Shown here in pieces: positions 9,369-30,158 of a stretch of 64,000 nucleotides of DNA; position 1 is the stretch's first letter; each line of letters begins with the position of its first letter. The stretch is from Methanocella arvoryzae MRE50 (lineage in GTDB: Archaea > Halobacteriota > Methanocellia > Methanocellales > Methanocellaceae), in NCBI RefSeq assembly GCF_000063445.1, contig NC_009464.1, positions 2,480,001 to 2,544,000 on the forward strand, in the 5' to 3' direction. A program made the translations under genes and the position numbers. Under the pieces are notes generated by a model. It was not told the origin of the DNA. It ran no database searches and worked only from the letters and a program-made list of their open reading frames with translations.

Positions 9369-10364
9369 ATGGTCGTTAAGCTGATCGATAACAAGGATCT
9401 ATGGGATAAGCATATGGATGAAAGTGCCTACGGCACCCTTTTTCACAAGTGGGACTTCCTGAGGATCATCGAGAAGTGCTCTGGCTACCGTCTTTATCCC
9501 TACGGTATCTACAGGGGAGACGAGCTGGTCTGTCTGTTCCCGGTGTTCGCCAGGAGCGCCATGGGCTGGGTTACAATAGCTTCGCCTCCTCCAAACATGG
9601 CCATCCCGTATCTCGGATTAGTGATGAGCCCTATCTACGATAAGCTCCGGCAGCGCAAGAAGGAGTCTTATCTCAACCACGTCGTGGAGGAGATGGAAGC
9701 CGAGATCAAAAAGCTGCATGCTGGCTCCATAAGCATTACCACGGTCAATGGCTTCGTAGACATGAGGCCTTTCAAGTGGAGCGGCTACCACGTCCAGATG
9801 CAATATTCCTACGCGGTGAGCCTGAAACAGCCTGCGGATGAAATCCTGAACCGGTTCGACGGAAAGCTGAAAGGGTTGATAGCGGAAGCTGAAAAGCTCC
9901 CCCTGTCGATTGTCCCTGCGGACGATGATATGGGCGGGTTCTGCAAGGCTTTGGCCAGCCACTATCGCAGGAGCGGGACCCCAAAGGCTGCGCCCTCTCC
10001 AGAGTTCCTCAAAGAAGTCATCTCCGCTTTCCCCGATAACGTTAAGATCTGCTACCTGCGGAACGGGGATCAGATCGCTGCACCGATCGTTTATTACCAG
10101 TATAAGGGCCGGTTCTCCTTCTGGCTCGGATGGGGGATCAGCGATTCAGGGCTTCGAAACGACGCGTATGTTGCCTGGAGCTTCATCAGGAGCAAGCAGG
10201 CGGAAGGGCTGGCGACACTGGAGCTGCCGGGATCGGGGCAGCGGGAGCTCTGCTACTTCAAGTCGATGTTCAACGCTCCTCTCGAATACCATTTCTCGAT
10301 AAGAAAAAGCGATCTGCTGGGCTCGATCGCCGGAAGCCTCCGCCATGGTGCCGCGGTTTCGTGA
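9369..10364 (+). CDS. FemAB/GNAT-like transferase, paralogue 1
   Basis: This is the first of five tandem paralogues of the FemAB-like, Acetyltransf_6 (GNAT fold) group. Bacterial relatives transfer an aminoacyl or acyl group to a cell-wall or polysaccharide acceptor. Shared features are LFHKWDFLRIIEK near residue 25, PYGIYRGDEL, VDMRPFKWSGY near 135, and a C-terminal block ending KSMFNAPLEYHF. It is the most divergent of the five: the CR-I-A segment reads LKGLIAEAEK and the late asymmetric block is DAYVAWSFI. Start is the ATG at 9369. The next gene begins within 50 bases downstream. No signal peptide, so it is probably cytoplasmic. Acceptor and donor unknown. Confidence 0.75.
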   Translation: MVVKLIDNKDLWDKHMDESAYGTLFHKWDFLRIIEKCSGYRLYPYGIYRGDELVCLFPVFARSAMGWVTIASPPPNMAIPYLGLVMSPIYDKLRQRKKESYLNHVVEEMEAEIKKLHAGSISITTVNGFVDMRPFKWSGYHVQMQYSYAVSLKQPADEILNRFDGKLKGLIAEAEKLPLSIVPADDDMGGFCKALASHYRRSGTPKAAPSPEFLKEVISAFPDNVKICYLRNGDQIAAPIVYYQYKGRFSFWLGWGISDSGLRNDAYVAWSFIRSKQAEGLATLELPGSGQRELCYFKSMFNAPLEYHFSIRKSDLLGSIAGSLRHGAAVS

Positions 10365-10412
10365 GGCCTCATGAATTCTGGAAAGCGAAGCGAGAGGCAG
10401 GCAGGGATTGAC

Positions 10413-11426
10413 ATGTCCGTAGAACTCGTCGAAGATAAAGCCCTGTGGGACCGGTTCGTCGACGACAGCCCTAATAGCATGCTTTTCCATAAATGGGCTT
10501 TCCTGGAACTGCAGGAAAAGTACACGGGCGACAAGCTTCTGCCTTACGGTGTCTTCGATGGCAATGACCTGACCTGCATCCTGCCGGTCTTCAGCTCCCG
10601 GCAGAACGGGCTCAGGCTGCTCTACTCCCCGCCACGCAGTTCCCTCGTCTACATCCCTTACCTCGGCCCTGCAACCAGCGCCGGTATCGCCCGGCTACAG
10701 CCTCACGACCGGGAGAGCGCATGGAGATCCATCATCGGGGAGATCTGCGCTGAATTCGGCCGGCTGTCGCCCAATTACGTGGCGCTGGGGCTTTCCCCCG
10801 GTTTCCTCGACGTGAGGCCCTTCGAGAGGACTGGCTACGAGGCCGACCTCATGTATACTTACATCATCGATCTGGACCGGCCTGTCCAGGCTATATGGGA
10901 CTCTCTCGAGCGCGATACTCGAAAATGCATCAAGGAAGCTTCAAAACATTCCCTGTCCATCGTCCAGAGCACCGATACGGCCACGTTCGCCCGTGAAATG
11001 GCACAGGGGCTGAAAAATCAGGGCACGACCTTCTTCCACCGCCAGAGGCCGGAATACCTGACGGAGATCCTCGATACCTTTCCGGACAACGTCAGGATGT
11101 ACTTCCTGTACGACGGAGAAGACCTCATCGGGGCAAATGTCCTCTGCTGCTTCCACGGGCACTGCATCGGCTGGATGGGAAACACGGCCGTCAGGGGAAG
11201 CTTCAGCGCGAACGAGTATCTGCTCTGGGAGCAGATGCAGAGGGTCAAGCGAGAAGGCTGCAGGACCTTCGAGAACACCGGCGCGGACGAAAAGCGCCTC
11301 AACCTTTCCAAGACCAAGTTCAACCCTGCGCTGGTTCCCTGGTTTTATATCTACAGGCGGGACCCGCTGTACAGGACGGCTAAATATGGCCTGACCACGC
11401 TGGAAAAGATCAAGAGGCATGCCTGA
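10413..11426 (+). CDS. FemAB/GNAT-like transferase, paralogue 2
   Basis: 337 residues from ATG 10413 (MSVELVEDKALWDRF), preferred over an open extension to 10371 because it aligns with the paralogues' N termini and has AGGG at good spacing. Shared blocks: MLFHKWAFLELQEKYTG, LVYIPYLGPAT, LDVRPFERTGYEADLMYTY, RDTRKCIKEASKH, TTFFHRQRPEYL, NEYLLWEQM and a final FNPALVPWFYIYRR. The overlap of its stop with the next coding frame implies coupled translation. Likely part of the same acceptor-modification pathway as its neighbours; specificity unknown. Confidence 0.77.
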   Translation: MSVELVEDKALWDRFVDDSPNSMLFHKWAFLELQEKYTGDKLLPYGVFDGNDLTCILPVFSSRQNGLRLLYSPPRSSLVYIPYLGPATSAGIARLQPHDRESAWRSIIGEICAEFGRLSPNYVALGLSPGFLDVRPFERTGYEADLMYTYIIDLDRPVQAIWDSLERDTRKCIKEASKHSLSIVQSTDTATFAREMAQGLKNQGTTFFHRQRPEYLTEILDTFPDNVRMYFLYDGEDLIGANVLCCFHGHCIGWMGNTAVRGSFSANEYLLWEQMQRVKREGCRTFENTGADEKRLNLSKTKFNPALVPWFYIYRRDPLYRTAKYGLTTLEKIKRHA

Positions 11427-11436
11427 AGGTGAGCGG

Positions 11437-12450
11437 ATGGAACTGATACTCGACCAGGACAAATGGGACAGCTTCGTGGAAGAAAGCCCTAACGGGACGC
11501 TCTTTCACCGGTGGGACTTCCTGCAGATCGTGCAGAAGTACACTGGCTACAGGCTTTATCCATACGGGATCTACAGGGAAGGCGAACTGATCAGCATTAT
11601 CCCGTTTTTCCTGCGGATCCAGAAAGGGCTTAAAATGATGATCTCCCCGCCGCCTTTGCCCATGGCTAACGTGCCTTACCTTGGCTTCGCCATGAGTCCG
11701 GCCTTCCATGAGCTGCCGCCCCACGAGAAGCTCGTCGCATGGGACTGGATCGTGAGGGACATGCACAGGGGCCTGAAGCCCACGCCAAACTATGTCTGCA
11801 TAGGCCAGACCTCCGACGTCAGCGACATCCGGCCTTTCGAGTGGCAGCAGTACGAGGTCGACCAGCAGTACACCTATGTGCTGGACTTGCGCAGGCCTCT
11901 CAAGGAGATCTGGGACGGCTTCGACCGGGACTGCAGAAAGAACATCAACGAGGCCAAAAAGCATCCCCTGTCTTTCCGGGAGGTAAGCGACGTCGACCGG
12001 TTCAACGAGACCATGAAGGAGCACCTTACCAAAGACGGGCCGACCTTCTACCACCGCCGGGATCCCGCATACCTGGGAGAGCTTCTCCGCGCCTTCCCCG
12101 AGAATATCAAGCTGTACTTCTTCTACAACGGAGACGAGGTCGTCGGGGTGAAGATCAACCTGGGCTATAAGAAATGGTACATGTCCTGGATGGGCAACGT
12201 AGCGGTCCAAAAAGAGCTGAGCACTAACGAGTACTTCTACTGGGAGCTGATCAAGAAGGCCAGGGCTGACGGGTACACCAGGCACGAGAACTATGGCACC
12301 TACAACCAGCGCCTGAACCTGTTCAAGTCTAAGTTCAACCCCGCCCTCGAGCCCTGCTTCTACGCCCAGAAGAAAGACGTTCTGTTCGAAACCATGTGGC
12401 GAAGCTACAATGCGGTCGAGAGCTTCGCCAAAGCCATCAGGGTGAAATGA
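11437..12450 (+). CDS. FemAB/GNAT-like transferase, paralogue 3
   Basis: 337 residues from ATG 11437 (MELILDQDKWDSF); AAGGTGAG lies just upstream and the open frame extends to 11419. The starting region overlaps the end of paralogue 2. Conserved blocks: LFHRWDFLQIVQKYTGY, SDIRPFEWQQYEVD, RDCRKNINEAKKHP, PTFYHRRDPAYL, TNEYFYWELIKKA and KSKFNPALEPCFY. The CRKNI-EAKKHP segment is the element most constant across paralogues 2-5 and may line the acceptor or donor site, which is an inference. Codon use and GC match the neighbours, so the array probably arose by local duplication. Confidence 0.77.
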   Translation: MELILDQDKWDSFVEESPNGTLFHRWDFLQIVQKYTGYRLYPYGIYREGELISIIPFFLRIQKGLKMMISPPPLPMANVPYLGFAMSPAFHELPPHEKLVAWDWIVRDMHRGLKPTPNYVCIGQTSDVSDIRPFEWQQYEVDQQYTYVLDLRRPLKEIWDGFDRDCRKNINEAKKHPLSFREVSDVDRFNETMKEHLTKDGPTFYHRRDPAYLGELLRAFPENIKLYFFYNGDEVVGVKINLGYKKWYMSWMGNVAVQKELSTNEYFYWELIKKARADGYTRHENYGTYNQRLNLFKSKFNPALEPCFYAQKKDVLFETMWRSYNAVESFAKAIRVK

Positions 12451-12451
12451 C

Positions 12452-13501
12452 ATGAAGAATAATACCTTCAGCAAGGGCGGAAATGCCAGGATCTTCGTAG
12501 AGCCGATCGTTGCCAGAGACACATGGGATCGGTTCATAGATACCAGCCCTAACTCCCAGCTCTTCCACAAATGGGACTTCCTGCAGATCCTGGAGAAGTA
12601 TACCGGCTACCGGGCGCATCCCTGCGGGCTATACCGGAATGATGAGCTGATCAGTGTCATCCCCCTGTTCCACAAGAAAAAGAAAGGCTTTAACTTTGTC
12701 TACTCTCCCCCGCAGGCCAAGCTCTCGTACGTGCCGTACATGGGCTTCGCGCTAAGCCCCGCCTACTACGATCTGCCTCAGGTGGAAAAAGAAAGCCTTA
12801 TGTCCCGGATCATCGGCGAGACTGACCTTTTCCTCAGGCGCTTTTCCCCGGGCTACACCTCGTTCGCGGTAGCCCCGGGAGACGTAGATGTCAGGCCGTA
12901 CCTCTGGAACGGCTACGAAATGGAGCTCCAGTACACCTATACTTTCGACCTTACGAAGCCTGTAGAGGAACTCTGGAGAGGCCTGGACAAGCGATGCCGG
13001 ACGAACATTACCAGTGCCAGAAAGGAAAACCTGTCTCTCGTCCGTTCCACAGACGCGCAGAAGCTATTCGATGTCATGCAGGGCAGCCTTGCCGACGAAG
13101 GCTCGACCTTCTTCCACCGCCAGACCTACCGGTACCTGGAGGACATGCTGGCTACGTTCCCCGATAATATCAAGCTGTACTTCTTATACAGGGACGACGA
13201 GCTTGTCGGGGCCGACGTCAACTACGAATACCGGGGCCGGTGCACCACCTGGATGGGCACGGCAGTGCTGACAGACGGCATGAGCGCGAACGAGTACCTG
13301 CTCTGGGAGCTGATCAACAGGGCAAAAGCTGCAGGGATCCGGACGTACGAAAATCTCGGGGCCGATGAAGCCCGTCTGAACCTGTTCAAGTCCAAGTTCA
13401 ACCCGGACCTCGTGCCGTATTTCTACATCACTAAAAAGAATCCCCTGTTCAAAGTAGCCACCTATGGCTCGGAGAAGGTAGCAAGGATACTGGGGCGGTG
13501 A
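12452..13501 (+). CDS. FemAB/GNAT-like transferase, paralogue 4
   Basis: 349 residues, starting one base after the previous stop (AATGACATGAAG), with AGGGTGA in front. It carries about 10 extra N-terminal residues relative to the paralogues. The family homology begins at IFVEPIVARDTWDRF, so an internal start at an ATC codon is an alternative. Blocks: LFHKWDFLQILEKYTGY, VDVRPYLWNGYEMELQYTY, KRCRTNITSARKE, STFFHRQTYRYLEDML, NEYLLWELINRA, KSKFNPDLVPYFY. It is closest in appearance to paralogue 2. Confidence 0.77.
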   Translation: MKNNTFSKGGNARIFVEPIVARDTWDRFIDTSPNSQLFHKWDFLQILEKYTGYRAHPCGLYRNDELISVIPLFHKKKKGFNFVYSPPQAKLSYVPYMGFALSPAYYDLPQVEKESLMSRIIGETDLFLRRFSPGYTSFAVAPGDVDVRPYLWNGYEMELQYTYTFDLTKPVEELWRGLDKRCRTNITSARKENLSLVRSTDAQKLFDVMQGSLADEGSTFFHRQTYRYLEDMLATFPDNIKLYFLYRDDELVGADVNYEYRGRCTTWMGTAVLTDGMSANEYLLWELINRAKAAGIRTYENLGADEARLNLFKSKFNPDLVPYFYITKKNPLFKVATYGSEKVARILGR

Positions 13502-13555
13502 GACGGTGATGGGTGAACCTCACTTTCACGTCGATCGGACAAAGGAGTCGAACAA

Positions 13556-14590
13556 ATGACCATCGAGTTAGTTACAGACAAAGAACTGTGGGATAAGTTC
13601 GTAGATCAGAGCCCTTACGGCACCCTCTTTCACAAGTGGGACCTGCTGAAGATCATCGAAAAGCACTCCGGCTACGAAATGCGGCCGTACGGACTTTTTA
13701 AAAACGATACCCTGTACGCCGTCGCCCCTCTCTTTTTCAAAAACATAAAAGGGGTGAAGATGGTCTATTCGCCGCCTCAGGGGACGCTTGCCTACATACC
13801 CTACATGGGGCTGGCCATGAGGCATGACTACAAGACCCTGAAGCAGCGGAAACGAGAGCAGTACCTGGATAATGCCTGGGCCGATCTGTCGGGGGAACTG
13901 AAACGAATAGGGGCTAACATAGTCTCGATCACCATGGTCCCCGACATGTATGACGTCAGGCCTTTCATGTGGGACGGCTACGAGATCAAGCTACTTTACA
14001 CCTACTTCCTCGATCTCACCCAGACCGAGGAAGAGATCTGGAACAGCTTCGACAACGACTGCCGCCAGAAAGTCCGGGCCAGCGCCAAACATAACCTCAC
14101 CATTAAGCAGTCTATGGACGTGGATACTTTCTTCAACATCATGGTCGGCCGCCTCAAGGGCTACGGCAACAACTTCTTCACCCGGCAGAGCCCCGAATAC
14201 CTGCGTGACCTGCTCACCGCCTTCCCGGAGAACATCAAGCTGTACTTCATGTACAAAGATCAGGATATCGTGGGCGCAGCCATCAACTGCTGCTATAAAG
14301 ACCAGTATACCGGGTGGTTCGGAGATGCCACCATCAACCGCGAGATCGCCTCCAATGAGTACATGAACTGGGAATTCATCAAAATGGCCAAAGCCCAGGG
14401 CTACAAGCGGCTCGAAAACTGGGGGGCAGACATGAAGCGGGTGAACCAGTTCAAGTCCAAGTTCAACCCGACCCTGGTGCCCTATTTCCACGTCCGGAAG
14501 AAAGACCGGCTGGGAGCGATCTCAGAGTGGGGGTACGACAATATCCTCGCCAGCCCTTACCTCGGGTTCGTCAGGAAGACGATTTTCTAA
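13556..14590 (+). CDS. FemAB/GNAT-like transferase, paralogue 5
   Basis: 344 residues from ATG 13556 with AAAGGAG upstream. It is the last of the tandem array. Blocks: LFHKWDLLKIIEKHSGY, YDVRPFMWDGYEIKLLYTY, NDCRQKVRASAKHN, NFFTRQSPEYLRDLL, NEYMNWEFIKMA, KSKFNPTLVPYFHV. A gap of about 50 bases separates it from paralogue 4, the widest within the array. The protein has no membrane segment or signal. A long inverted-repeat element follows immediately. Confidence 0.77.
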   Translation: MTIELVTDKELWDKFVDQSPYGTLFHKWDLLKIIEKHSGYEMRPYGLFKNDTLYAVAPLFFKNIKGVKMVYSPPQGTLAYIPYMGLAMRHDYKTLKQRKREQYLDNAWADLSGELKRIGANIVSITMVPDMYDVRPFMWDGYEIKLLYTYFLDLTQTEEEIWNSFDNDCRQKVRASAKHNLTIKQSMDVDTFFNIMVGRLKGYGNNFFTRQSPEYLRDLLTAFPENIKLYFMYKDQDIVGAAINCCYKDQYTGWFGDATINREIASNEYMNWEFIKMAKAQGYKRLENWGADMKRVNQFKSKFNPTLVPYFHVRKKDRLGAISEWGYDNILASPYLGFVRKTIF

Positions 14591-14624
14591 TATTTTCTTT
14601 CCGTACTATAAAGAATAGATGGAC

Positions 14625-15050
14625 TCTGCGCTGTGCCTCACTTGATTGCACAGGCTACTCGAGACCGCATGTCGAACGCTGCGCTGTGCCAATCCTCACA
14701 GATGCCACAGATTCTTATTGATTCCACAGATTTCTCTGCTGAATCCACAGATTACTACACGATAACACAGAAGGAATACGCTAATACTATTCGATCACGG
14801 ATTACAATTATAAGACAGTCGATCAGAATATTTTTTATTTATCTGTGGAATCCATCGTCATCTGTGCTATCCAGTCGTAATCTGTGGAATCAGTTTCAAT
14901 CCGTGAAATCTGTGAGGTTTTGCACAGCGCAGCGTTCGTATTGCTGTCTCACCACACAAGAGCAACTAGAAAACGCACAGCCCCGCGTTCGTCTTGCAGG
15001 CTCACCACCAATGAGCATAGTAGAACGCGCTGCACTCGCCGGATTTGTTC
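14625..15050. repeat. Long inverted-repeat element A (CGCTGCGCTGTGC ends)
   Basis: The gene-free stretch 14591-15050 is filled by this element. CGAACGCTGCGCTGTGC at 14673-14689 is the exact reverse complement of 14922-14938. Inside, the left half repeats CCACAGATT-like words and the right half repeats AATCTGTGG, around an AT-rich centre near 14800-14850. The interior is clearly homologous to element B at 21983-22235. Short open frames through it are repeat artefacts. Confidence 0.85.
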
Positions 15051-16061
15051 TCAGAGAGCTTTCACCATGATCTGGCACCCTGTGCCATCCGGGTAATAGT
15101 GCGGCACTATCGTTTTCTCCCGGTAGTCGTGCTTCCGGTACAGCGAGATCGCCCCGGCGTTGTCGGTTCTCACCTCGATATAGCAGCTTTTGCACCCGGC
15201 CTTTGCCACTGTGTCGGCGAAGGTTTGCATCAGGCTGTCTCCGATGCCTTTTCTCCGGTAGTTTCCATCTACGACGATCTTGAGGATGTGCCCTGTATTG
15301 CCAGAGCGCCCCATGATGATTTCTCCAATCAGAAACCCTGCCGGCTTGCCATCGTATCGGGCGGCGAGGAATAACGGGGAACCTGACCTGGCAAGCCTGC
15401 TCAGGTCGTTCAGGTACACCACGCTGTACATGCCATGCCTGACCAGCAACTTCAGGGCAGCAGGGACATCAGAAGGGCTTGCTTTCCCTACTGTGACAGG
15501 CCCGTTCCGCAAGACCTCTGCATATACCACAATTCCCGGAGCAAAAACGCCGGTCAGCCGCTTTCCTGCCGCCTGCAGCATCGAGATCCCGAGCATAACC
15601 GCGTTATACGGCAGCAGGCCCATTTCTTCGACGTGTGATAGCTCATGCCCTAACACCACTTCGAGTTCTTCGTCGTCTAGCCTCTCCTGCAGCCCCCTGG
15701 TAATGAAGAGGACTGTCCGGCCCTTTGTCATGCCGAGAACGAATGCCTGAAAAGCCGGGCCCCGGAGCATCGCGATCCGGGGCGCAGGAATGCCTGCTTT
15801 GCTGCATATCTTCCTTGTGATTCTGTACAGCCGGGGCTCATCTGCCTCCCCGGCAGGCTTTGCCCTCAGCAGCAGAATAGCAGCACGATCAAACAGTACA
15901 TACGTGGCCAGCCCTGCTGCGACGACCATTAGCAATATAATCCCTACGTGCATCCAGTCGATGCCTGCATATGCCGGGGAGAGGACCAGCGCTGCCAGCG
16001 CAGCCGATATTGTACCGTAGACTATTAGCTTTCTCTCCAGATGCCTGATCCCTATGCGCAC
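15051..16061 (-). CDS. M48-like metalloprotease domain fused to a GNAT acetyltransferase
   Basis: Two N-terminal membrane spans (about residues 13-30 and 38-58) are followed by an M48/HtpX-like segment with GHELSHVEE (HELSH at 139-143), the zinc-binding motif. From about residue 188 the protein becomes a RimI-type GNAT domain, with ILKIVVDGNYRRKGIGDSL (acetyl-CoA loop R-R-K-G-I-G) and LYRKHDYREKTIV. Only about 45 residues lie between HEXXH and the GNAT domain, so the third zinc ligand that M48 enzymes supply further on may be missing or atypical. Start is GTG 16061 after GGGAG. Convergent with nothing; the heparinase-like gene lies upstream on the same strand, 12 bases away. Confidence 0.8.
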   Translation of the reverse strand: MRIGIRHLERKLIVYGTISAALAALVLSPAYAGIDWMHVGIILLMVVAAGLATYVLFDRAAILLLRAKPAGEADEPRLYRITRKICSKAGIPAPRIAMLRGPAFQAFVLGMTKGRTVLFITRGLQERLDDEELEVVLGHELSHVEEMGLLPYNAVMLGISMLQAAGKRLTGVFAPGIVVYAEVLRNGPVTVGKASPSDVPAALKLLVRHGMYSVVYLNDLSRLARSGSPLFLAARYDGKPAGFLIGEIIMGRSGNTGHILKIVVDGNYRRKGIGDSLMQTFADTVAKAGCKSCYIEVRTDNAGAISLYRKHDYREKTIVPHYYPDGTGCQIMVKAL

Positions 16062-16073
16062 TATTGCTCCCTT

Positions 16074-18641
16074 CTATGCCGGTAATATCTGATATGTGTG
16101 CTCGCCGTGGCTGGCCTTGATCCTGATCGTGTCACTGTTGACTGCTTCCCAGTTGTCCCTTTGCACGCCGTCTGTGAGTACCCGGTATTTTGCAGGCAAA
16201 GTTAGCTGGCTGAGCGTAATGGTCACATAAGTATCGCTCTTGACCCGCAGGGAGACGTCTTCAGCGGAACTGTCTACTGTAAGGTAGTCCATCGGCCCGG
16301 TAGCTTTGACGAGAGGCCTTTCTCCTGCGTCGAGGTACGTGCCGTTCAGGATCGTGTACCGGGTATACCCGTCGCCAGATGCCCGGATGTAGGCTGTATC
16401 TGCGTTCGTGGCAAATTTGCCGAACCGGCTGTCGCCAGCGCCGGTATATACGGTGTCTACGTAGCCGGGGGCAGAAATGCTCAGGGCATTGCCGGTGCCC
16501 GTAACTTTCACCTGCGCGGCAGATGCTTCCGGATCCGACTGGTACCGGGACATCAGGGCGGTGACCCTGTACATGTTTTTCTCCGGCTCCTGAGACCTGA
16601 AATAAACGATGGGGGAGTATACGTCCGAAGCCATGTCGTTGCCGCCTATCACGCTCAGGGACTTTGTAAGGTAAACCTTTGATGCCGGCACCGAGTAGAC
16701 CTTCAGCTCTACGGGATTGCCATAGGGGTTTGTGGTGCTCCACTCGAAGTGCTCAGTCACGATACCGGTGTCTACGTCGACTGCGTAGTCTGCAGCCTGC
16801 CAGTCGTACCTGTACCCTCCGAGGCTGAGATCGCCGATCACCCGGCCGATGTTCCCCGGGCTGAGGGTCTTCACAATCTCGAAGCTTGCGGGCCTCCATA
16901 TGTTGCGGTAGATCCACGGCTCGCTTCCTTCGGCACGATCGATCACGAGGAAGTACCCGTCTTCAGGCAGCAGCACCGTGCGCTCCAGGTCTATGGGCGA
17001 GCTCAACGGTATCTCCTTCTCGCCTGTCCAGTTAGGAGAACCGGTTATGTGCTCCTCCGCCGTGAGGATGTCCATCCATGGGGTTGTGACAGTCCTTGAG
17101 ACCCTGGCCGGAGTGGTGACCCCCGAGGCGTCTCCCTTGGAGCCTCCGACAAACCTTCCGCCGCTCGCCGCATCGACCGGGAAGGGCTGCCGGGGGTTTT
17201 CGAAGACTACTACGTTGTGGTACACAGGGGCCATGCCGTAGTCGGGGTTCCTCACCCACTTGTTCTCCCCGCCGTCGGCGAGCAGGATATTGCCTTTGCC
17301 GTAGTACTGTATTCCCAGCTGGTCAGCCCTGATCTCCAGCCTCGTGGTGCCTGTGGAGACGGGCTGGGTGGTCACCATGCTGAGGAAGTCGCTGTCTACA
17401 GACCACCCGTTTCTCATGGTCTGAAACATGGCGTCCGGGTTCAGGTGGCTGGTGTAAGGCGGAGGGTTTCTGGGCAGGTCGTTATAGTTGTGCTCGCACA
17501 GGTAGGCTGTGGTGTAGCCACCGTTCCACTCCGTGCTCGGATCGGGCATGTACCGGATGTTGGCGTTGACGTTGTCGTAGTGCCTCAGGACGGCGCTTCT
17601 GTTCACCTCGTCCAGCAGGTTGGCGATGCAGGCGTGATAGTTGAACCGCAGGTTTAGCAGCGTCTCATAAGTGGCCTCCACCCCGTTCGGGTAGGAATCC
17701 CATACCTCTGCGGTGAAGTGGCCTTTCATGATCGGGTACTTCTCGACGTAGTTCTCCCCGGTGACGTGGGTGTATGCCTGGGCGAACAGCACCATGTTCT
17801 CCAGCGTGTAGGTATTGTAGCCGATGAGATCCTTGCCTGTGGCAGCATCGAACCCATAGTAGACGATGGGCTTATGCCTGTCGTGGAGCGGGTCGGAAAC
17901 GAAGAAGTAGTCGGTGCCGCACTTCAGCCAGTCGGAGGGACCGCTCTTCAGGCTCAGCCGGCCGGGATTGTCATAGTCAGCGAGCGCAAGGCCTGCGAAG
18001 GCAACGTTGATATATGCCTGGCCATGGTAGTCCCAGAAGGTGACGTAGTCTGTATCGGTCCCGTCCGAGTTCAGCTCCCGGTAGACCTGATCTGCCAGCT
18101 TCGCCAGCTTATCCCTCACCTTCGCGTCCGTCTGCTCGCTCATGTACGGCTGCACCAGGTCATAAGCAATGCTATAATCCCTGACAGCGACAGATCTGCG
18201 GTGAGGGCTGTAAGGGTCACCGACCCCGATGTTCGTCAGCGCCTCCACGGCCTTCTTCGCGTACTTCTCGTCTCCGGTGATATGCCACGCCATCGCGAAG
18301 GTCTTCGCATAGCCTGCCCGGCTCATGATGTCCTCCCGGGGGTCCCCCGGCCATGGTACGCTGAAATCACGATCGTAGACTATGTTGGCTCCCCTGATGA
18401 TCTCGTATTCATAGCCAGACCACGGGGTCAGGTTGCGGTTCTGGTACCCCGGAGTTTCTCTGATGTCGTTGAAAAACAGGTATGGATGGGTGACCGGTCC
18501 GGGCAATGTGCCGGGCACGACTGTCCTGTTAGTGACCGGTTCCGGGCCAGCGTCAGTCGTCACGAGGGGTTTCATCACCAGGATGATTAATGCCAGCAAA
18601 ATTAGGGCTAACCCTGAGATTATGAGCTTATTCTTTATCAG
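16074..18641 (-). CDS. Heparinase II/III-like polysaccharide lyase family protein, secreted or membrane-anchored
   Basis: About 855 residues. The N terminus is a signal peptide or anchor (KNKLIISGLALILLALIILV). It is followed by an alpha-helical toroid-type segment (KTFAMAWHITGDEKYAKKAVEAL, repeated helices) and a C-terminal beta-sandwich region (DGGENKWVRNPDYGMAPVYHNVVVFE), typical of heparinase II/III and alginate-lyase relatives. Those enzymes cleave uronic-acid-containing polysaccharides, but the substrate here is not identifiable. The shortest conventional start is TTG 18599, which truncates the signal. CTG 18641, six bases after GGAGG, gives a complete one. It begins 27 bases after the stop of the upstream membrane-protein gene, so the two are co-transcribed. 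Confidence 0.75.
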   Translation of the reverse strand: MIKNKLIISGLALILLALIILVMKPLVTTDAGPEPVTNRTVVPGTLPGPVTHPYLFFNDIRETPGYQNRNLTPWSGYEYEIIRGANIVYDRDFSVPWPGDPREDIMSRAGYAKTFAMAWHITGDEKYAKKAVEALTNIGVGDPYSPHRRSVAVRDYSIAYDLVQPYMSEQTDAKVRDKLAKLADQVYRELNSDGTDTDYVTFWDYHGQAYINVAFAGLALADYDNPGRLSLKSGPSDWLKCGTDYFFVSDPLHDRHKPIVYYGFDAATGKDLIGYNTYTLENMVLFAQAYTHVTGENYVEKYPIMKGHFTAEVWDSYPNGVEATYETLLNLRFNYHACIANLLDEVNRSAVLRHYDNVNANIRYMPDPSTEWNGGYTTAYLCEHNYNDLPRNPPPYTSHLNPDAMFQTMRNGWSVDSDFLSMVTTQPVSTGTTRLEIRADQLGIQYYGKGNILLADGGENKWVRNPDYGMAPVYHNVVVFENPRQPFPVDAASGGRFVGGSKGDASGVTTPARVSRTVTTPWMDILTAEEHITGSPNWTGEKEIPLSSPIDLERTVLLPEDGYFLVIDRAEGSEPWIYRNIWRPASFEIVKTLSPGNIGRVIGDLSLGGYRYDWQAADYAVDVDTGIVTEHFEWSTTNPYGNPVELKVYSVPASKVYLTKSLSVIGGNDMASDVYSPIVYFRSQEPEKNMYRVTALMSRYQSDPEASAAQVKVTGTGNALSISAPGYVDTVYTGAGDSRFGKFATNADTAYIRASGDGYTRYTILNGTYLDAGERPLVKATGPMDYLTVDSSAEDVSLRVKSDTYVTITLSQLTLPAKYRVLTDGVQRDNWEAVNSDTIRIKASHGEHTYQILPA

Positions 18642-18667
18642 AAAACCCCTCCGCGCCCGGTAAAAAA

Positions 18668-20509
18668 TTATCTGCCCGGCCCTGTCTTACTGGGGCCCAT
18701 CAGCATACTGGTGTTCCTGTAGGTGGCATTGCCACTCTGATTCGATACGGTTTCATTGACCTCTGGCTCGGGCGGCACATATCTATCGAGGCCAGTGTAG
18801 GCGCTGATCGTTTTTGAGCTGAAGATCTTGTCCTGGCTGGCGAGGCTGGAGAAGACGGGGTTATCTCTATAGTAGTAGTTGGATAGGGTATACAGGCTCT
18901 CGTTTCTGGACGAGAACTCCCCGTCGGGTGAGTAGTACAGCTGCATCGGCCTCTTCTTCAGCTCCCCGTCCCTGATAAGGATCACGTCCTCGCTACGGTT
19001 GGTCAGGAACCGCTCGTTATTGTATACCTGCAGCATCCTCGTGTAATTGGCATCGAACGTGGGCAGCGACTCCAGATATCTGACGGTGATGTAGTCTGAG
19101 AGCATGTAGGTGGAGTCCATCTTCATATTGTTGAGCAACTGTATGCTGGTCGTTTCCTCTTCAGTGACGTAGAAGGTGTAGAATGGCCTTTTCACGATCG
19201 GGTTATCCAGCGCTACCCTGTCGTTGGATACCGACAGGACCACCCATATGGCGAAGAGTAAGATCAGGAAGGGCCTGACGTTCGTCTTTACTTTCGTGTA
19301 CAGGTAGTACAGGCCGATAGCGGCCACAATGCCGACGAACAGGAACGTGTATTCCTCGAACCGCTGGAAGTTGAAATTGCCGGAGAGCTTGTTGACCATC
19401 ATCAGAGGCCCCGGGAAAGCCACAGGCACCAGCAGCAGCGCTTCGAGGCACAGGATCTTGACGTTGGTGCCGATCTTCTTGTGGCCGATGACGATCAGGG
19501 TCGCCAGGATCACAAACAGGACCGTCGGCGAGTACTGGAGATAGTTGAACAGCTCGTTGAGCGGGGCCGTGTAGATCGACTTGGTAAAAGCGCCTATAGG
19601 GGCCTGCATCATGATGTTGACCAGCAGCGTCCTCACCAGCTCCTGGGCATTGATCACCCAGTAGAGCAGCGTCATTGCGGAGGCTATGATCAGATACGAA
19701 TACGTGATCGGCGATTTCTCTTCCTTAGCGAAGATCTGGTACAGCAGGTACATCAACAGCAGCATGACCAGCACGTATGGTATCGAGACTGTGTGGTAGA
19801 TGATGATGGCCAGCGTGGCCAGCAAGGCCAGCAGGTAGTACTTGATATGCTTTGGGCTTTCCAGCAGGAGCCAGAACAGGACGATGAAGAGGAATGAACA
19901 AACCGACCTGGGTATGGAATACATGCCATATGTGATGAGGATCGGATAGAACACCACGACCAGCGCAGAGAGGAGGGCGATCTTTCTGTGCTTCAACAGG
20001 CGTTCGGATACGAGGTATATGGCCGGGGGCACGAAGGCGAAGATCAGGCCGCAGGTTATGTAAGCGATCTTATTGACCGGCAGGCCGAGCCCCGTCAGCA
20101 GCAGGAGGTAGTCGCAGAGGATGTGCCACAGTGCAAACGGCATGTATATGCCGAACGCCTCCGTCACGTAGCCCGACGTCAGCAGATCGTTCATCAGGCG
20201 GGTGTGATCGAGAATATCTGTATATCCGATGTAGTAATAGTACTTGAGCGTGGCTCCCCACAGCACGTTCAGCATCAGGAACATGATCTGCAGCAGCAGT
20301 ATGACCACAGTCGTATCCGTATGCTCTTTCGTCATAATTTGCAGCATGACTACGGTGGCCAGAGCCGCTATGACTATGTAGTAGAGGACGGTTCTTTCCG
20401 GACTGGCGGCCAAAAGCATGAGGGACAGGCCAAAAAGAACTGCATAGAGCAGGGTAAGCGTTTTCATCGGCCTCTCTTTCAGCGCAGAGATCACGTTCGC
20501 GTATGCCAT
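18668..20509 (-). CDS. Multi-span membrane protein, GT-C or polymerase-like
   Basis: 613 residues with about 12 hydrophobic spans in the first 420 and a C-terminal soluble tail rich in Asn and Tyr. Features resembling GT-C glycosyltransferases or oligosaccharide polymerases are an acidic loop after the third or fourth span (YIGYTDILDHTRLMNDLL) and an early long periplasmic-type segment, but no diagnostic motif settles the family. Downstream partner: the heparinase-like protein. Upstream partner: a 114-residue membrane protein whose stop lies 3 bases before the start, so the three genes form an operon. Likely role in surface glycan assembly, by context. Confidence 0.6.
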   Translation of the reverse strand: MAYANVISALKERPMKTLTLLYAVLFGLSLMLLAASPERTVLYYIVIAALATVVMLQIMTKEHTDTTVVILLLQIMFLMLNVLWGATLKYYYYIGYTDILDHTRLMNDLLTSGYVTEAFGIYMPFALWHILCDYLLLLTGLGLPVNKIAYITCGLIFAFVPPAIYLVSERLLKHRKIALLSALVVVFYPILITYGMYSIPRSVCSFLFIVLFWLLLESPKHIKYYLLALLATLAIIIYHTVSIPYVLVMLLLMYLLYQIFAKEEKSPITYSYLIIASAMTLLYWVINAQELVRTLLVNIMMQAPIGAFTKSIYTAPLNELFNYLQYSPTVLFVILATLIVIGHKKIGTNVKILCLEALLLVPVAFPGPLMMVNKLSGNFNFQRFEEYTFLFVGIVAAIGLYYLYTKVKTNVRPFLILLFAIWVVLSVSNDRVALDNPIVKRPFYTFYVTEEETTSIQLLNNMKMDSTYMLSDYITVRYLESLPTFDANYTRMLQVYNNERFLTNRSEDVILIRDGELKKRPMQLYYSPDGEFSSRNESLYTLSNYYYRDNPVFSSLASQDKIFSSKTISAYTGLDRYVPPEPEVNETVSNQSGNATYRNTSMLMGPSKTGPGR

Positions 20510-20512
20510 GGC

Positions 20513-20857
20513 TTATACACCTATAACGTCGATGTTCTCGGAGTCTGCCCTTTTAACGAAAACGAAGTGGTAGATTAGAGGGGCCGATATCATGGGTATA
20601 GCCAGGTAGATGCCGAGCATCGTGAGGTTGAGCAGCCCGAACAGGGTCGGGATGGTGACCCCCAGCAGCCCGGCGACCGGTAATGAGTATATCAGCGCTT
20701 TTCGGACGAACTCGTAGTTCGAGGTCTTCTTCCATAACTGCCGGGAGATCCGGATAACAGCCTTGACTTTGATAGATAGTATCGCTAATATTATAATGAG
20801 TATAACGTTATAAATGTCAAACGATACCTGCCCAATCATTTGCATAATAATATACAT
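20513..20857 (-). CDS. Small membrane protein
   Basis: 114 residues with about three hydrophobic segments (IYNVILIIILAILSI, ALIYSLPVAGLLGVTI, MLGIYLAIPMISAPLIYHFVF). Not recognised. The next gene starts 3 bases after its stop. AT-rich sequence at 20840-20890 is the likely promoter of the three-gene operon. Confidence 0.6.
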   Translation of the reverse strand: MYIIMQMIGQVSFDIYNVILIIILAILSIKVKAVIRISRQLWKKTSNYEFVRKALIYSLPVAGLLGVTIPTLFGLLNLTMLGIYLAIPMISAPLIYHFVFVKRADSENIDVIGV

Positions 20858-20922
20858 AGCATTATTATATATAATAATTTTCCCTTAGTCCCAGACAGGG
20901 ATAATGTACGCTGTTCGAAAGC

Positions 20923-21726
20923 TCAGGCCTTCGGGCAGCCCTGCTTCTCCAGCATACTCTTGACGTAAGGCATAATTTTCCCCGTCACATGGATCTCGTC
21001 TGCGGCAAACTCGTCCTTGATTAGTCCCCTGTCGTCTGCCACGACGGGGTATATGTCAAGATACCTGTAGCCGTGCGCTTCGCAAAACGTCTTCAGCTTC
21101 TGATTGAACCGGCGGTTGATGGGGCTGCGCACCTCCGGGGATGCGAGGAAGGGGTAGCTATTCCGGAATTCGCTAAACAGGTCTTCTTTGATCTTTTCCG
21201 TAGCGTACGGGGGAAACCGGAAGACGTGCTTCGAAGCGGGAAGCACTCCATATACCACGAAGTTGACCCCCATGCCTTTCAGCTGTGCAAGGACTTCCCC
21301 GTAGTTGGCGATCGTCCTGTCCATCAGCTCTTCTATCGAGACCTTACCCCCGCTCTTCATGTGCTGATTATAGAAGTGCACGCGGCAGTCGATCTCTCCG
21401 AATACCATGATGACGACGTCTTTTTTAATGTCGATCCGGCGAATGACCTCGAAAAGTTTCCTGTTGGACTGGACTGAGCTGTTCTTGTTGACTAAGTTAT
21501 ACGCCGTCGCCGGCCCGATATTGTGGACTATAAACGACCTTTGCCGCTTGAAAGCCCAGGTATGGCTGTCCCCGATCACGTGAAACAGGGGCCTGTTGAA
21601 GACTTTCGCGTAGACGTACGAATAAAAGTGATTCAGCTTCCTCAGGAAAATCTCCGTGTCAGTAGTCACCTTGTAGGTCAAAAGATATACTATGCCCCGA
21701 CCACGGGCAACTTCCGCAGCGGTCAT
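20923..21726 (-). CDS. SGNH/GDSL-like hydrolase
   Basis: 267 residues with SGNH-type blocks in order: GDSHTWAF (nucleophile Ser, block I), an FGEIDCR segment in the block III position, and DEIHVTG near the C terminus (Asp-x-x-His, block V). No signal peptide. Such enzymes often remove or add acyl groups on polysaccharides, or are esterases; the substrate is unknown. It sits between the membrane-protein operon and the repeat element, and has its own AT-rich upstream region (21760-21800). ATG 21726 is used, though an internal start near YLLTYKV is possible. Confidence 0.65.
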   Translation of the reverse strand: MTAAEVARGRGIVYLLTYKVTTDTEIFLRKLNHFYSYVYAKVFNRPLFHVIGDSHTWAFKRQRSFIVHNIGPATAYNLVNKNSSVQSNRKLFEVIRRIDIKKDVVIMVFGEIDCRVHFYNQHMKSGGKVSIEELMDRTIANYGEVLAQLKGMGVNFVVYGVLPASKHVFRFPPYATEKIKEDLFSEFRNSYPFLASPEVRSPINRRFNQKLKTFCEAHGYRYLDIYPVVADDRGLIKDEFAADEIHVTGKIMPYVKSMLEKQGCPKA

Positions 21727-21874
21727 GATGTAATCTTTGAGGTCTATGGGAATCCCGCCGAGATATTAATATTGACGTTATTATATTAATATCTAACTGT
21801 GTAACGACATGCGCTGGAATCGTTGTCTATTCTATTGTGAATGGCTCTTGCATCTTCTCTACCGAACGTACACC

Positions 21875-21997
21875 AACGCTGCGCTGTGCCTCACCTGATT
21901 GTACAGGCTCTCACGAGACGGCAAGAAGAACGCTGCGCTGTGCCTCACCTGATTGTACAGGCTCTCACGAGACAGCAAGAAGAACGCTGCGCTGTGC
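21875..21997. repeat. 54-base tandem repeat at the end of element B
   Basis: Units start at 21875, 21929 and 21983. Each begins AACGCTGCGCTGTGCC and two continue through CTCACCTGATTGTACAGG to GGCAAGAAG or AGCAAGAAG. The third enters the inverted-repeat element. The period is exactly 54. Confidence 0.9.
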
Positions 21998-22235
21998 CAA
22001 TCCTCACAGATGCCACAGATTCTGATTGATTCCACAGATTCCCCTGCAGAATCCACAGACTACTCGATAGCACAGAAGGAATACGCCAATATTATTTGAT
22101 CACCATAGCAATCATAAGATAATCGATCGGATTATTTTTATCTGTGAAATCCGTCGTCATCTCTGCTATCCAGTCGTAATCTGTGGAATCAGTTTCAATC
22201 TGTGGCATCTGTGAGGAATAGCACAGCGCAGCGTT
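21983..22235. repeat. Long inverted-repeat element B (same family as A)
   Basis: AACGCTGCGCTGTGC (21983-21997) is complementary to GCACAGCGCAGCGTT (22221-22235). The interior matches element A closely (CAATCCTCACAGATGCCACAG on the left; CCAGTCGTAATCTGTGGAAT on the right). It occupies most of the gene-free stretch 21727-22363. Confidence 0.87.
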
Positions 22236-22363
22236 CGTATTGCAGTCACACCACGCCCAGGCAACCGGGTGGTAGCATCGTATCCTGGGATAAGCTATAG
22301 CTGGCATACCCTATGAATTACAATTATATAGTAAGTAATATAATATAATGTTTGATATATCTC

Positions 22364-23644
22364 ATGTCTCTGGCCGTCGGGAACTGCTACGGCAGGCTGA
22401 AGAGCAGCCTGTACGATCCGTTTTACAAGAACGCCTTTTTCATGGTCATGAACAAAGGGCTGGGCGTAGTTTCCGGCTTCGTGTTCTGGGCGCTGGCGGC
22501 GAGGTTCTACACGGTGAATGAGGTCGGCAATGCCGTTGTCCTGATCTCTGCGGCCTCGCTGATCATTGCCTTTTCAATGATGGGGTTCGACATCTCCCTC
22601 GTCCGGTTTTTCCACCACTACGACAAGAACAAGGTCTTCAATACTTCGCTGGTGGTCATGGTATCCACGGCGTTCCTTGTCGGTGTCCTGTACGTGGTGG
22701 CCGTAAAATACGTGGCCCCGGATCAGGCATGGCTTCAGTCTCCTGTGTACGCGCTGATCTTTCTGCTCTACATCGTCCTCAGCGCTATCGGCCTTGTCAA
22801 TTCCCAGACCTTCATAGCCATGAGGGATGCCCGGTACACCTTTTTCCAGAACGTCCTCTACTGCTCTAAAATCCCGCTTCTTTTCTTCCTGACCTTCATG
22901 GGGTTCTTCGGCATCTTCAGCGCCAACGTGTTCTCTTATGTTATCGCCTTCCTCTTCGTGCTACTGATCCTGAACAAGTTCGTCAAAGTCGACCTTCATG
23001 TAGATATGGAGTACATCAAGAAGGCCTTCCGGACATCTTCCCGTAACTACGTGGCCAGCATCCTCTACAACGCCGCCTTTCTCACCGTGCCTATCATCAT
23101 CTCCATGCAGCTCGGAGAAGCCGACGCAGCCATTTACTATATGGCCTTCACCGTGGGCAACTTTCTGTTGCAGATCCCCATCTCGCTGAGCACCTCGTTC
23201 TTCGTCGAAGGCGTTTACGGGGAGAGCTTAAGGAAGAACTTCATCAAGGCAGCCCTGACGGTCTACTCGATCCTGGTCCCGGCAGCCGTATTCTTCTTCC
23301 TGTTCGGGGGCTTCATTCTCAGCCTGTTCGGGCCTGGCTATGTGGCCGGGGCAGACCTGCTGAACCTGGTGGTGATCTCAAGCTTCCTGTATACTCTGTA
23401 CTCCATGTTCATCCCGGTCCTGAACATCCGGATGAATGTCAACACCATCATAGTGCTCAACGCTATCCTGTTTTCAGTTCTGCTCGGGCTTACCTGGCCG
23501 CTTACGGGGATGTTCGGCATCAACGGGTTCGGCTATGCACTAATTCTTACCTTCCTCGCAGTAGACGCGGCCATACTTTTCTTCGCCTGGCGGTGGAAGT
23601 GGATATGGCCTGCACCGGCAACCCATTATCTTTCAGATGCATGA
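22364..23644 (+). CDS. Polysaccharide flippase (MATE/Wzx-type)
   Basis: About 426 residues with 12 predicted membrane spans and no large soluble domain. The N terminus (NAFFMVMNKGLGVVSGFVFW) and the GLVNSQTFIAMRD segment match the oligosaccharide flippase group that moves lipid-linked glycans across the membrane. ATG 22364 is chosen over TTG 22352. No clear Shine-Dalgarno; an AT-rich promoter region (22320-22350) lies immediately upstream. It is the first gene of a run with the sixth FemAB-like protein and a DUF354 protein, so a lipid-linked glycan is a plausible FemAB acceptor (inference). Confidence 0.85.
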   Translation: MSLAVGNCYGRLKSSLYDPFYKNAFFMVMNKGLGVVSGFVFWALAARFYTVNEVGNAVVLISAASLIIAFSMMGFDISLVRFFHHYDKNKVFNTSLVVMVSTAFLVGVLYVVAVKYVAPDQAWLQSPVYALIFLLYIVLSAIGLVNSQTFIAMRDARYTFFQNVLYCSKIPLLFFLTFMGFFGIFSANVFSYVIAFLFVLLILNKFVKVDLHVDMEYIKKAFRTSSRNYVASILYNAAFLTVPIIISMQLGEADAAIYYMAFTVGNFLLQIPISLSTSFFVEGVYGESLRKNFIKAALTVYSILVPAAVFFFLFGGFILSLFGPGYVAGADLLNLVVISSFLYTLYSMFIPVLNIRMNVNTIIVLNAILFSVLLGLTWPLTGMFGINGFGYALILTFLAVDAAILFFAWRWKWIWPAPATHYLSDA

Positions 23645-23655
23645 ATAATAATAAA

Positions 23656-23669
23656 TTTTATATATATAA
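23656..23669 (+). promoter_or_regulatory. TATA box deciding the start of FemAB-like paralogue 6
   Basis: TTTATATATATAAA ends one base before an ATG at 23670. A transcript starting about 25 bases downstream could not include that ATG, so the next candidate, TTG 23700, is favoured. Confidence 0.6.
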
Positions 23670-23699
23670 ATGGACTTATTTTACTATCAGGGTATTTGC

Positions 23700-24716
23700 T
23701 TGACAATCGAACTTATAGACGATAAGCAGCTGTGGGACGACTTCGTCGAAGCCAGCCCCTATGGTTTGCTCTTTCACCGCTGGGAATTTTTAAAGCTGAT
23801 AGAGAAACATTCCGGCTATAAGCTGCTGCCTTACGGGGTTTACCTTGGGAACGAGCTCATCTGCGTGTTCCCGCTTTTCCTGCGCAAGTACCCCGGACTG
23901 AAGATGGTCTTTTCCCCGCCGCCCCAGACAGCGGTCCCATACCTGGGGCCCGTGATGACGCCCGCCTACGACACGATCAGGCAGCGCAGCAAGGAGCACT
24001 ACATGTCGATGGTGGCCGGCGATATCCATGAGCAGATCGACAGGATCTCTCCGGGCTACACCCACTTTGTCTGGGTCCCCGGGCTGCTTGACGTCAGGCC
24101 GTTCAAATGGAATGGCTATAGCGCAGAATCGCTGTTTACCTACACCATCGATCTGACCCGGCCGCTGGACGAGATCTGGAAAGGCTTCGGGAAAGACTGC
24201 CGGGAGCGCATCAGGGACTTCTCCAGAGTCAGTTTCACCCAGGAAGAATCCGACGACCTGACTACCTTCTACCGCCTCTCGGAGGAACTTTACGGCCAGC
24301 AGGGCCTTAGCCTTCCTCTACTCGGCCAGCAGTACCTCGAGGAAGTCATGCGCCTCTTCCCCGACAACCTGAAAATGTACTTCCTGAGGCGGGACGGGGA
24401 GATCGTCGACATCGAAGGCACCTATGCCTACAAGAACCACTTCAAGCTCCTCTGGGGCATCTCCAACGAGAAGTACCGGGGCCACCAGGAATACCACACC
24501 TGGGACCTGATCAAGAAAGCTAAAGAGCGGGGCTTCAAGGAGTTCGAGATCGTCGGGGCGAATACCCGGCGCATCAGCCATTACCAGTCGAAGTTTAACC
24601 CGTCCATGAGCATGTACTTCTCGGTCCAGAAGATGAACGCCATAGGCAGCGTGGCAAGGTGGTCCTACCAGAACCTGATCAGGAGACAGCCGCTGAAAGC
24701 CCGTGCCGGGGAGTGA
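23700..24716 (+). CDS. FemAB/GNAT-like transferase, paralogue 6
   Basis: 339 residues from TTG 23700 (MTIELIDDKQLWDDF), aligning with paralogue 5's N terminus; AGGG lies seven bases ahead. Blocks: LFHRWEFLKLIEKHSGY, LDVRPFKWNGYSAESLFTY, KDCRERIRDFSRV, HTWDLIKKAKERGFKEFEI, QSKFNPSMSMYF. It is separated from the tandem array by 9 kb and lies beside the flippase and a DUF354 protein. The central FHRxxPEYL block of the others is replaced by LPLLGQQYLEEV, so acceptor specificity may differ. Confidence 0.75.
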   Translation: MTIELIDDKQLWDDFVEASPYGLLFHRWEFLKLIEKHSGYKLLPYGVYLGNELICVFPLFLRKYPGLKMVFSPPPQTAVPYLGPVMTPAYDTIRQRSKEHYMSMVAGDIHEQIDRISPGYTHFVWVPGLLDVRPFKWNGYSAESLFTYTIDLTRPLDEIWKGFGKDCRERIRDFSRVSFTQEESDDLTTFYRLSEELYGQQGLSLPLLGQQYLEEVMRLFPDNLKMYFLRRDGEIVDIEGTYAYKNHFKLLWGISNEKYRGHQEYHTWDLIKKAKERGFKEFEIVGANTRRISHYQSKFNPSMSMYFSVQKMNAIGSVARWSYQNLIRRQPLKARAGE

Positions 24717-24766
24717 ACCGGCCTCAGGCACTATATTTCTGGCTATTTGACAATAAGGAGTTGATT

Positions 24767-26333: not shown

Positions 26334-27302
26334 CTATGCTGATAATACATTATCAGCTTCGCTCGGGACCCCGGTGATGGCTCTCTTGCATCCTGCGATA
26401 TCGCAGTTTACCAGCGCTTCGCTCAGGGTCATCTTGGTGACCTTCTTGAGCGAGCTTAAGATGCGGGTGATCCGCTTTTCTACGATGCTTCCCTTGATCA
26501 TCCAGTACCCTGGCCTGTTCTTTCCCACCCGGGGGAACTCTTCGTCAGAGATGTCGATGGGGTGGAAGTAGAACACGGTATGGCCTCGCTTCAGACTTTG
26601 CTTGAGCCCCTAGAGGATGATGCTGGAGCCGAGGAACCTCAATATGGGCCCTCCATACGCCGGTATTTTCACCCCCGCCTCGAACCGGGCCCAGGGGAAC
26701 TCCACGATGCCGCGCTTCTCCCCGACGCTCAGGCTGGACCTGCGCGGGTAGTATGGAATTGTGGTAACGTCGTCGACCGGGCTGCCGGTCTTATGGAAAA
26801 AGGAGTTCACGTTGACGGAAGAGTCGTATTCGAAGTCAATTTCTTCCAGGGCATCGATCATCCAGCCCGAGATCAGAGCATTCGGCGCCCGGTACCCGAT
26901 GACCTTCTTCCCGGAAGCCTTCTCGAGCATTCGTTTCGCCAGCAGAGTGGCCGCCTTAAACACCTCGGGGTCCATGGCCGGCTCTTTAGTCCTGGGGTTG
27001 ATGATGCAGGGATGACGCAGACTATGGCAGGCGATCTCGTGGCCTCTTGCCGAGATCGCCTCCACCAGCCCCGGATAGTGCTCGACCACTTCTCCCACGA
27101 CGAAAAAAGTGGCCCTGACATCGAAGCGGTCCAGGATGTCGAGAGTCCTCATCGTAGGCCCGGTCAGGTAATCGTACCTGTCCTTCCACTTGCTGAAAAA
27201 GTCCACCGTATCCCTGAATTCTGAATATGGCGAGCCGCAAACCGACGGTACGTGATACCAGTCCTCGATGTCGACAGTAATGGAAATGCTCTGGTCTTCG
27301 AT
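26334..27302 (-). pseudogene. Polysaccharide deacetylase interrupted by an in-frame TAG
   Basis: A carbohydrate esterase 4 / NodB-type deacetylase with ITVDIEDWYHV (metal-binding Asp), RATFFVVGEV, GHEIACHSLRHP (metal His) and YRAPNALI motifs, and the C-terminal FYFHPIDIS block seen in the exopolysaccharide-associated deacetylase branch with a DUF3473-type end. At 26610-26612 a TAG separates FLGSSIIL from GLKQSLKRGHTVFYFHP; the frame is otherwise continuous to 26334. Either a nonsense mutation or read-through. The N-terminal start is unclear: ATG 27320 has no Shine-Dalgarno, whereas ATC 27302 lies six bases after AGAGAGGT and gives MEDQSISITVDIEDW. Expressed alone, the first part would lose about 80 C-terminal residues. 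Confidence 0.8.
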
Positions 27303-30156: not shown

Positions 30157-30158
30157 CG

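What the first reader, a model, noticed from the sequence alone, without database searches (positions are those of the whole stretch)
9369..24716. Six FemAB-like paralogues, five in tandem: a possible stepwise archaeal acceptor-decorating system
In bacteria, FemX/A/B paralogues add amino acids one after another to a lipid-linked precursor, each with its own position. Here six paralogues of about 340 residues (9369-14590 in tandem, plus 23700-24716) share CR-I-A and KSKFNP blocks but differ in central segments. They sit with a flippase, deacetylases, PIG-L and WbqC-type genes, and no pseudomurein genes are seen. I propose sequential acyl- or aminoacyl-transfer to amino sugars on an archaeal surface glycan made by the nearby deacetylases.
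Basis: inference. Interest (0 to 1): 0.8.

Follow-up and report, generated by a model that had tools for sequence, protein, structure and literature searches.

The report
Archaeal Fem-like sugar-decorating enzyme array
A methane-producing archaeon carries a row of five related enzymes, plus a sixth nearby, that look like the bacterial enzymes which hang amino acids on cell-wall and anchor sugars; relatives of these genes in many archaea sit directly behind a sugar-deacetylase gene, which suggests that they cap freshly exposed amino sugars, although what they attach is still open.

Summary
Six intact 331-351 aa paralogues (32-36% identical to the first) lie where stated, five in a tight same-strand row. 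The genome holds about a dozen; the three held relatives of the class have 2-3. A confident model (pLDDT 88) is a double-GNAT fold whose 23 best PDB matches are all FemX/FemA, streptothricin-type aminoacyl-tRNA-dependent synthases or MprF/PGS. The acyl-CoA P-loop is absent in all 88 relatives, and the FemX catalytic Lys is kept by 81 of 88, but not by the sixth window copy (Gln). The best clue lies outside the coordinates: the window's 'deacetylase' at 29113-30252 is VimE-like, and in 29 archaeal genomes of 12 families a FemAB-like gene lies directly downstream of a VimE-like gene (31 of 31 same strand; about 0.2 expected). In Porphyromonas, VimE bares a sugar amine and VimA, which matches the same TIGR03019 model, adds Ser or Gly. 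I therefore favour N-(amino)acylation of deacetylated sugar precursors. The aminoacyl-tRNA donor is unproven: PaaK-like acid-activating ligases are just as tightly linked in relatives, though absent from the window. 'Stepwise' action is untested; conserved three-gene arrays in Methanoculleus support specialisation, but without obvious glycan genes beside them.

The parts
9369..10364 (+). W1, FemAB-like double-GNAT protein, 331 aa; keeps F-K site (CYFKSMF)
10371..11426 (+). W2, FemAB-like, up to 351 aa; site reads S-K (LSKTKF)
11419..12450 (+). W3, FemAB-like, up to 343 aa; above the Pfam FemAB (PF02388) cut-off; overlaps the W2 stop
12452..13501 (+). W4, FemAB-like, up to 349 aa; starts directly after the W3 stop
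13556..14590 (+). W5, FemAB-like, 344 aa; above the PF02388 cut-off; structure modelled (pLDDT 88.1, pTM 0.87); best PDB matches FemX
23670..24716 (+). W6, FemAB-like, up to 348 aa; catalytic Lys replaced by Gln (YQSKF); separate lineage
22352..23644 (+). Wzx-type flippase (PF01943), directly upstream of W6
24659..25882 (+). DUF354 protein (weakly UDP-GlcNAc 2-epimerase-like), directly downstream of W6; recurs in relatives' cassettes
26610..27416 (-). XrtA-type polysaccharide deacetylase (PF01522; TIGR03006 partial), cut by an in-frame TAG
27589..28218 (+). PIG-L family de-N-acetylase; recurs in relatives' cassettes
28370..29107 (+). WbqC-like protein (PF08889)
29113..30252 (-). VimE-like sugar deacetylase (NF053580, 100.7 bits, E 6.7e-29, below cut-off 440); HDVD and LHGGY motifs
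30159..31139 (-). DUF1616 membrane protein, recurs near the cassettes
18668..20509 (-). large 613-aa protein, no Pfam match; relatives recur beside the flippase in sister loci

Best explanation
The six proteins are FemX/VimA-like double-GNAT acyltransferases that act in the cytoplasm on amino groups of sugar precursors bared by a neighbouring CE4-type (VimE-like) or PIG-L deacetylase, before the glycan is flipped to the surface. Each paralogue has diverged to serve a different acceptor position or a different (amino)acyl group. Shown here: family, fold, lack of the CoA P-loop, the FemX-like catalytic Lys in W1-W5 (W2 has Ser in place of the preceding Phe), and strong genomic pairing of relatives with VimE-like deacetylases. 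Inferred: that the acceptor is a sugar amine, that the added group is an amino acid rather than another acid, and that the paralogues divide the work. Not shown: a defined order of addition.
For: Fold: the W5 model's top 23 PDB matches are all FemX/FemA, Sba18/Sbb17 (aminoacyl-tRNA-dependent, streptothrisamine acceptor) or MprF/PGS enzymes. Sequence: best PDB profile match is FemX 6snr; TIGR03019 is the only NCBIfam hit, the model that VimA also matches (Veith 2020, PMC7468200). Active site: the FKxxF block corresponds to FemX F304-K305 (both essential, PMC4964394). P-loop [QR]xxGx[GA] in 0 of 88. Pairing: 31 of 96 VimE-like loci, in 29 genomes of 12 families, lie within 500 bp of a FemAB-like gene, 31/31 same strand with FemAB downstream. 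All three VimE-like genes of this genome lie 62 bp, 68 bp or 4.5 kb from a FemAB-like gene. AsnB-like amidotransferase, flippase, DUF354 and PIG-L recur in the cassettes. Precedents: VimA sets Ser or Gly on the linking sugar (PMC7468200); HfsK with deacetylase HfsH (PMC5362036); threonine on Methanococcus N-glycans (PMC2952790).
Against: In the window the VimE-like gene is 4.5 kb from W6 and on the opposite strand, and about 14.5 kb from the array. W6 has lost the Lys. The pair at 962.8-965.1 kb and the Methanoculleus triplets show no clear glycan genes among the scanned neighbours. VimE-like scores are far below NCBIfam's cut-off. Linked PaaK-like ligases in relatives point to another donor.
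Confidence: 0.58

Rival explanations
1. Same acceptor chemistry, but the donor is a carboxylic acid activated by a PaaK-like AMP ligase (acyl-AMP or acyl-CoA), so these are N-acyltransferases of aryl or other acids and not amino-acid transferases.
For: PaaK-like ligases sit in the same cassettes: of 59 close relatives, 36 lie within 5 kb of a FemAB-like gene in 19 genomes, and 12 lie within 1 kb of a VimE-like gene on the same strand. Methanoculleus triplets are flanked by three PaaK-like genes, with pyruvate:ferredoxin-oxidoreductase-type genes further out. The own genome has DUF354 - epimerase - PaaK-like - VimE-like - FemAB-like.
Against: No CoA P-loop in any member. No PaaK-like gene in this window. 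The nearest structures all use aminoacyl-tRNA.
Confidence: 0.27
2. A true FemX/A/B-like relay: the five tandem enzymes add residues one after another to the same growing peptide or acyl chain.
For: Tight five-gene row with diverged members. In Methanoculleus a three-gene array keeps three separately orthologous members, mostly in the same order, as a division of labour predicts.
Against: The same pattern fits parallel action on different acceptors. Some genomes lack an intact middle member (L075, L076), which a strict relay would not tolerate easily. No product is known.
Confidence: 0.15
3. Ordinary lineage-specific expansion of acetyl-CoA GNATs with small-molecule acceptors.
For: Pfam labels them Acetyltransf_6; one species has an excess of copies.
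Against: No P-loop, unlike the neighbouring ORF at 15051-16061, which has RRKGIG. FemX-type fold on top. Strong deacetylase linkage.
Confidence: 0.07

Closest known systems
VimA/VimE step of the bacterial Wbp/Vim linking-sugar pathway (Veith 2020, PMC7468200)
   Same: FemAB-type (TIGR03019-matching) transferase paired with a CE4-type deacetylase; AsnB-like amidotransferase and sortase-type genes in some related clusters
   Different: Archaeal; many tandem transferases per genome; VimE-like partner far below the curated cut-off; WbpA/B/D/E not demonstrated; PaaK-like ligase in several cassettes; in the window the two genes are not adjacent
FemX/FemA/FemB aminoacyl-tRNA peptidyl transferases
   Same: Double-GNAT fold of about 340 aa like Weissella FemX, no CoA P-loop, Phe-Lys site, paralogues with separate roles
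   Different: About 14-15% identity in the structural match; peptidoglycan acceptor not expected in an archaeon; only two of six members pass the PF02388 cut-off; W6 lacks the Lys
XrtA/PEP-CTERM FemAB (TIGR03019) and its exopolysaccharide loci
   Same: Only NCBIfam match for all six; TIGR03006-type deacetylase in the window; AsnB-like TIGR03108 relative in a sister locus (L079)
   Different: Scores of 36-78 bits against a cut-off of 260; the genome's single archaeosortase lies elsewhere (559 kb)
HfsK of Caulobacter (PMC5362036)
   Same: Two-GNAT FemX-like protein thought to work with a polysaccharide deacetylase (HfsH) on surface glycan precursors
   Different: Bacterial; c-di-GMP-binding, with a C-terminal tail needed for membrane association

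Membership tests
FemABX (PF02388) family | two GNAT domains in FemX arrangement | tested here: met
   W5 model pLDDT 88.1; FemX TM about 0.70 over the full length
FemABX (PF02388) family | passes curated Pfam cut-off (24 bits) | tested here: inconclusive
   W3 26.1 and W5 27.6 pass; W4 22.4 fails; W1, W2, W6 no hit
FemABX (PF02388) family | catalytic Phe-Lys (FemX F304-K305) | tested here: inconclusive
   Lys in W1-W5 and in 81 of 88 relatives; W2 has Ser for Phe, W6 Gln for Lys
FemABX (PF02388) family | aminoacyl-tRNA donor and peptidoglycan precursor acceptor | not testable with these tools
   needs biochemistry; PaaK-like ligases in relatives suggest another donor is possible
Acetyl-CoA GNAT | P-loop Gln/Arg-x-x-Gly-x-Gly/Ala | tested here: not met
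   0 of 88 in either expected loop; consensus from PMC4964394
VimA (Wbp/Vim pathway) | partner VimE deacetylase in the same gene cluster | tested here: inconclusive
   Adjacent in 29 genomes including two other loci of this genome; in the window 4.5 kb away on the opposite strand
VimA (Wbp/Vim pathway) | VimE partner passes NCBIfam NF053580 cut-off (440 bits) | tested here: not met
   100.7 bits in the window protein; none of 295 genomes passes
VimA (Wbp/Vim pathway) | WbpA/B/E/D supplying a 2,3-diamino uronic acid | not tested
   only an Epimerase_2 gene and an AsnB-like gene were seen in sister loci of this genome
XrtA FemAB equivalog TIGR03019 | passes equivalog cut-off (260 bits) | tested here: not met
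   36-78 bits

The most novel reading that the evidence does not exclude
Archaea run their own Wbp/Vim-like pathway in which a VimE-like deacetylase strips an acetyl group from a sugar precursor and a bank of FemAB paralogues, each with its own (amino)acyl donor, caps the amine. This would give a combinatorial N-acyl code on surface glycans and, where an archaeosortase is clustered (G100, G140), an amino-acid-bearing linking sugar for protein anchoring.
Probability: 0.2. Interest if true: 0.8.

Novelty: new variant of a known kind. Interest (0 to 1): 0.52.

Why it matters
Amino-acid-bearing glycans are known in archaea (threonine on Methanococcus N-glycans, whose transferase a 2010 review called unidentified, PMC2952790), and the papers read here do not establish the donor used by VimA-type enzymes. 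A conserved archaeal deacetylase-transferase pair gives named genes to test for both. Tandem arrays with fixed orthologous members would be a case, outside peptidoglycan, of Fem-type enzymes splitting a decoration job between paralogues.

Tried and rejected
Single origin of all six by local duplication: rejected for W6 (AU p 0.010), undecided for W1. The 'unk529' conserved protein (L071) was an antisense reading of PaaK-like genes and was dropped. Archaeosortase co-location as a general rule: nearly every genome has one (288 of 295) and the best hits lie elsewhere, so only the two clustered cases are mentioned. Literature search for FemAB in methanogens gave nothing relevant. The weak matches of the profile to designed proteins such as Top7 are set aside as chance.

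Full report
OBSERVATION. The six ORFs are present, intact and full-length at the stated places. The five of 9369-14590 are co-directional with overlaps or gaps of at most 54 bp, as in an operon. All pass the PF13480 cut-off; W3 and W5 also pass the FemAB PF02388 cut-off. They share 43 invariant columns at 32-36% identity to W1. GC3 is 0.71-0.81, close to the housekeeping genes of the window. The genome (3,179,916 bases; this size matches Methanocella arvoryzae MRE50 from memory) holds 14 matching stretches, including one split gene and one distant member. The three other held genomes of its class have 2-3; the family occurs in 104 of 295 phylum genomes.

PHYLOGENY. W2-W5 group together (88/69; W2-W4 97/92). 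W6 stands apart, and a clade of all six is rejected (p 0.010); W1 with W2-W5 is undecided (p 0.06). So the row grew at least partly by local duplication, but the copies are old and long-branched. In Methanoculleus-type genomes a separate array holds three members that form three orthologous clades across species. The order A-B-C is kept in L071, L072, L073 and L063; L056 has A-C-B, and L075 and L076 lack an intact B. Each member therefore kept its own identity through speciation.

FOLD AND SITE. A 24-sequence alignment gave a confident W5 model (pLDDT 88.1, pTM 0.87). Its 23 best PDB matches are FemX, FemA, the streptothrisamine aminoacyl-tRNA synthases Sba18/Sbb17, and MprF/PGS domains; ordinary GNATs follow at lower TM. 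The first-stage 'KSKFNP' block is the FKxxF segment that corresponds to FemX F304-K305 (FemX numbering checked; residues essential according to PMC4964394). Lys is kept in 81 of 88 relatives and in W1-W5; W6 has Gln. The GNAT P-loop is absent in all 88, while the GNAT fused to an HtpX-like domain next door (15051-16061) has RRKGIG. This argues against a plain acetyl-CoA enzyme but does not prove a tRNA donor.

CONTEXT. The window's second deacetylase (29113-30252) is VimE-like. Over 295 genomes, 31 VimE-like genes lie within 500 bp of a FemAB-like gene; all 31 share the strand and have the FemAB-like gene downstream, in 29 genomes of 12 families; about 0.17 expected. The listing was cut, so these are lower bounds, and related genomes are not independent. 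In Porphyromonas, VimE is proposed to remove the C-2 acetyl group and VimA to transfer Ser or Gly; swapping vimA between species swaps the amino acid, and VimA matches TIGR03019 (PMC7468200), the only NCBIfam match of our six. Flippase, DUF354, PIG-L, DUF1616 and AsnB-like genes recur around the relatives.

COUNTER-EVIDENCE. PaaK-like AMP ligases are linked just as strongly: 36 of 59 close relatives lie within 5 kb of a FemAB-like gene in 19 genomes, including a DUF354-epimerase-PaaK-VimE-FemAB row in this genome. The Methanoculleus triplets lie between three PaaK-like genes, a PGA_cap gene and oxidoreductase genes, and the scanned neighbours of the own pair at 962.8-965.1 kb contain no glycan gene. 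The window itself has no PaaK-like gene. So the donor may be an activated acid, and the glycan link is not universal.

CONCLUSION. Best reading: FemX/VimA-like N-(amino)acyltransferases acting on deacetylated amino sugars, with specialised paralogues (0.58). The donor and any stepwise order remain open. Membership in FemABX proper or in the VimA equivalog is not claimed, because curated cut-offs are failed or mixed. It works like them; it is a new archaeal variant of a known kind.

Noticed in passing
L001:6525-8202 (G000:C1 about 335524-337201): A FemAB-like gene elsewhere in the genome is split by a ~1.68 kb insertion with 25-nt terminal inverted repeats (92%) and a long transposase-like reading frame on the minus strand.
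   Followed up: partly
window 26610-27416 (-): XrtA-type polysaccharide deacetylase ends at an in-frame TAG while the family-like sequence (HTVFYFHP...) goes on in the same frame; probably a broken or shortened gene.
   Followed up: partly
window 15051-16061 (-): Single ORF fusing an HtpX/M48-like N-terminal part (HELSH) to a RimI-like acetyl-CoA GNAT with a normal P-loop, directly beside the array.
   Followed up: partly
window 37366-38382 (+): BtrH_N plus DUF4872 protein; from memory, BtrH moves an aminoacyl group onto an aminoglycoside amine, so this may be another aminoacyl-type transferase in the window.
   Followed up: no
window about 51000-63000: Wzt-type ABC exporter and membrane glycosyltransferase genes with GC3 0.31-0.45 against 0.71-0.81 elsewhere: a likely acquired glycan island.
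   Followed up: no
L081:4081-5130, L082:16463-17506 and relatives: In several G100/G222-type clusters the FemAB-like copy next to VimE-like lacks the catalytic Lys (F, Y or H instead), as W6 does (Q), while other copies keep it.
   Followed up: partly
window 6606-8993 (-): Subtilisin-like protease with a long Thr-Pro repeat linker and a YncE-like propeller.
   Followed up: no
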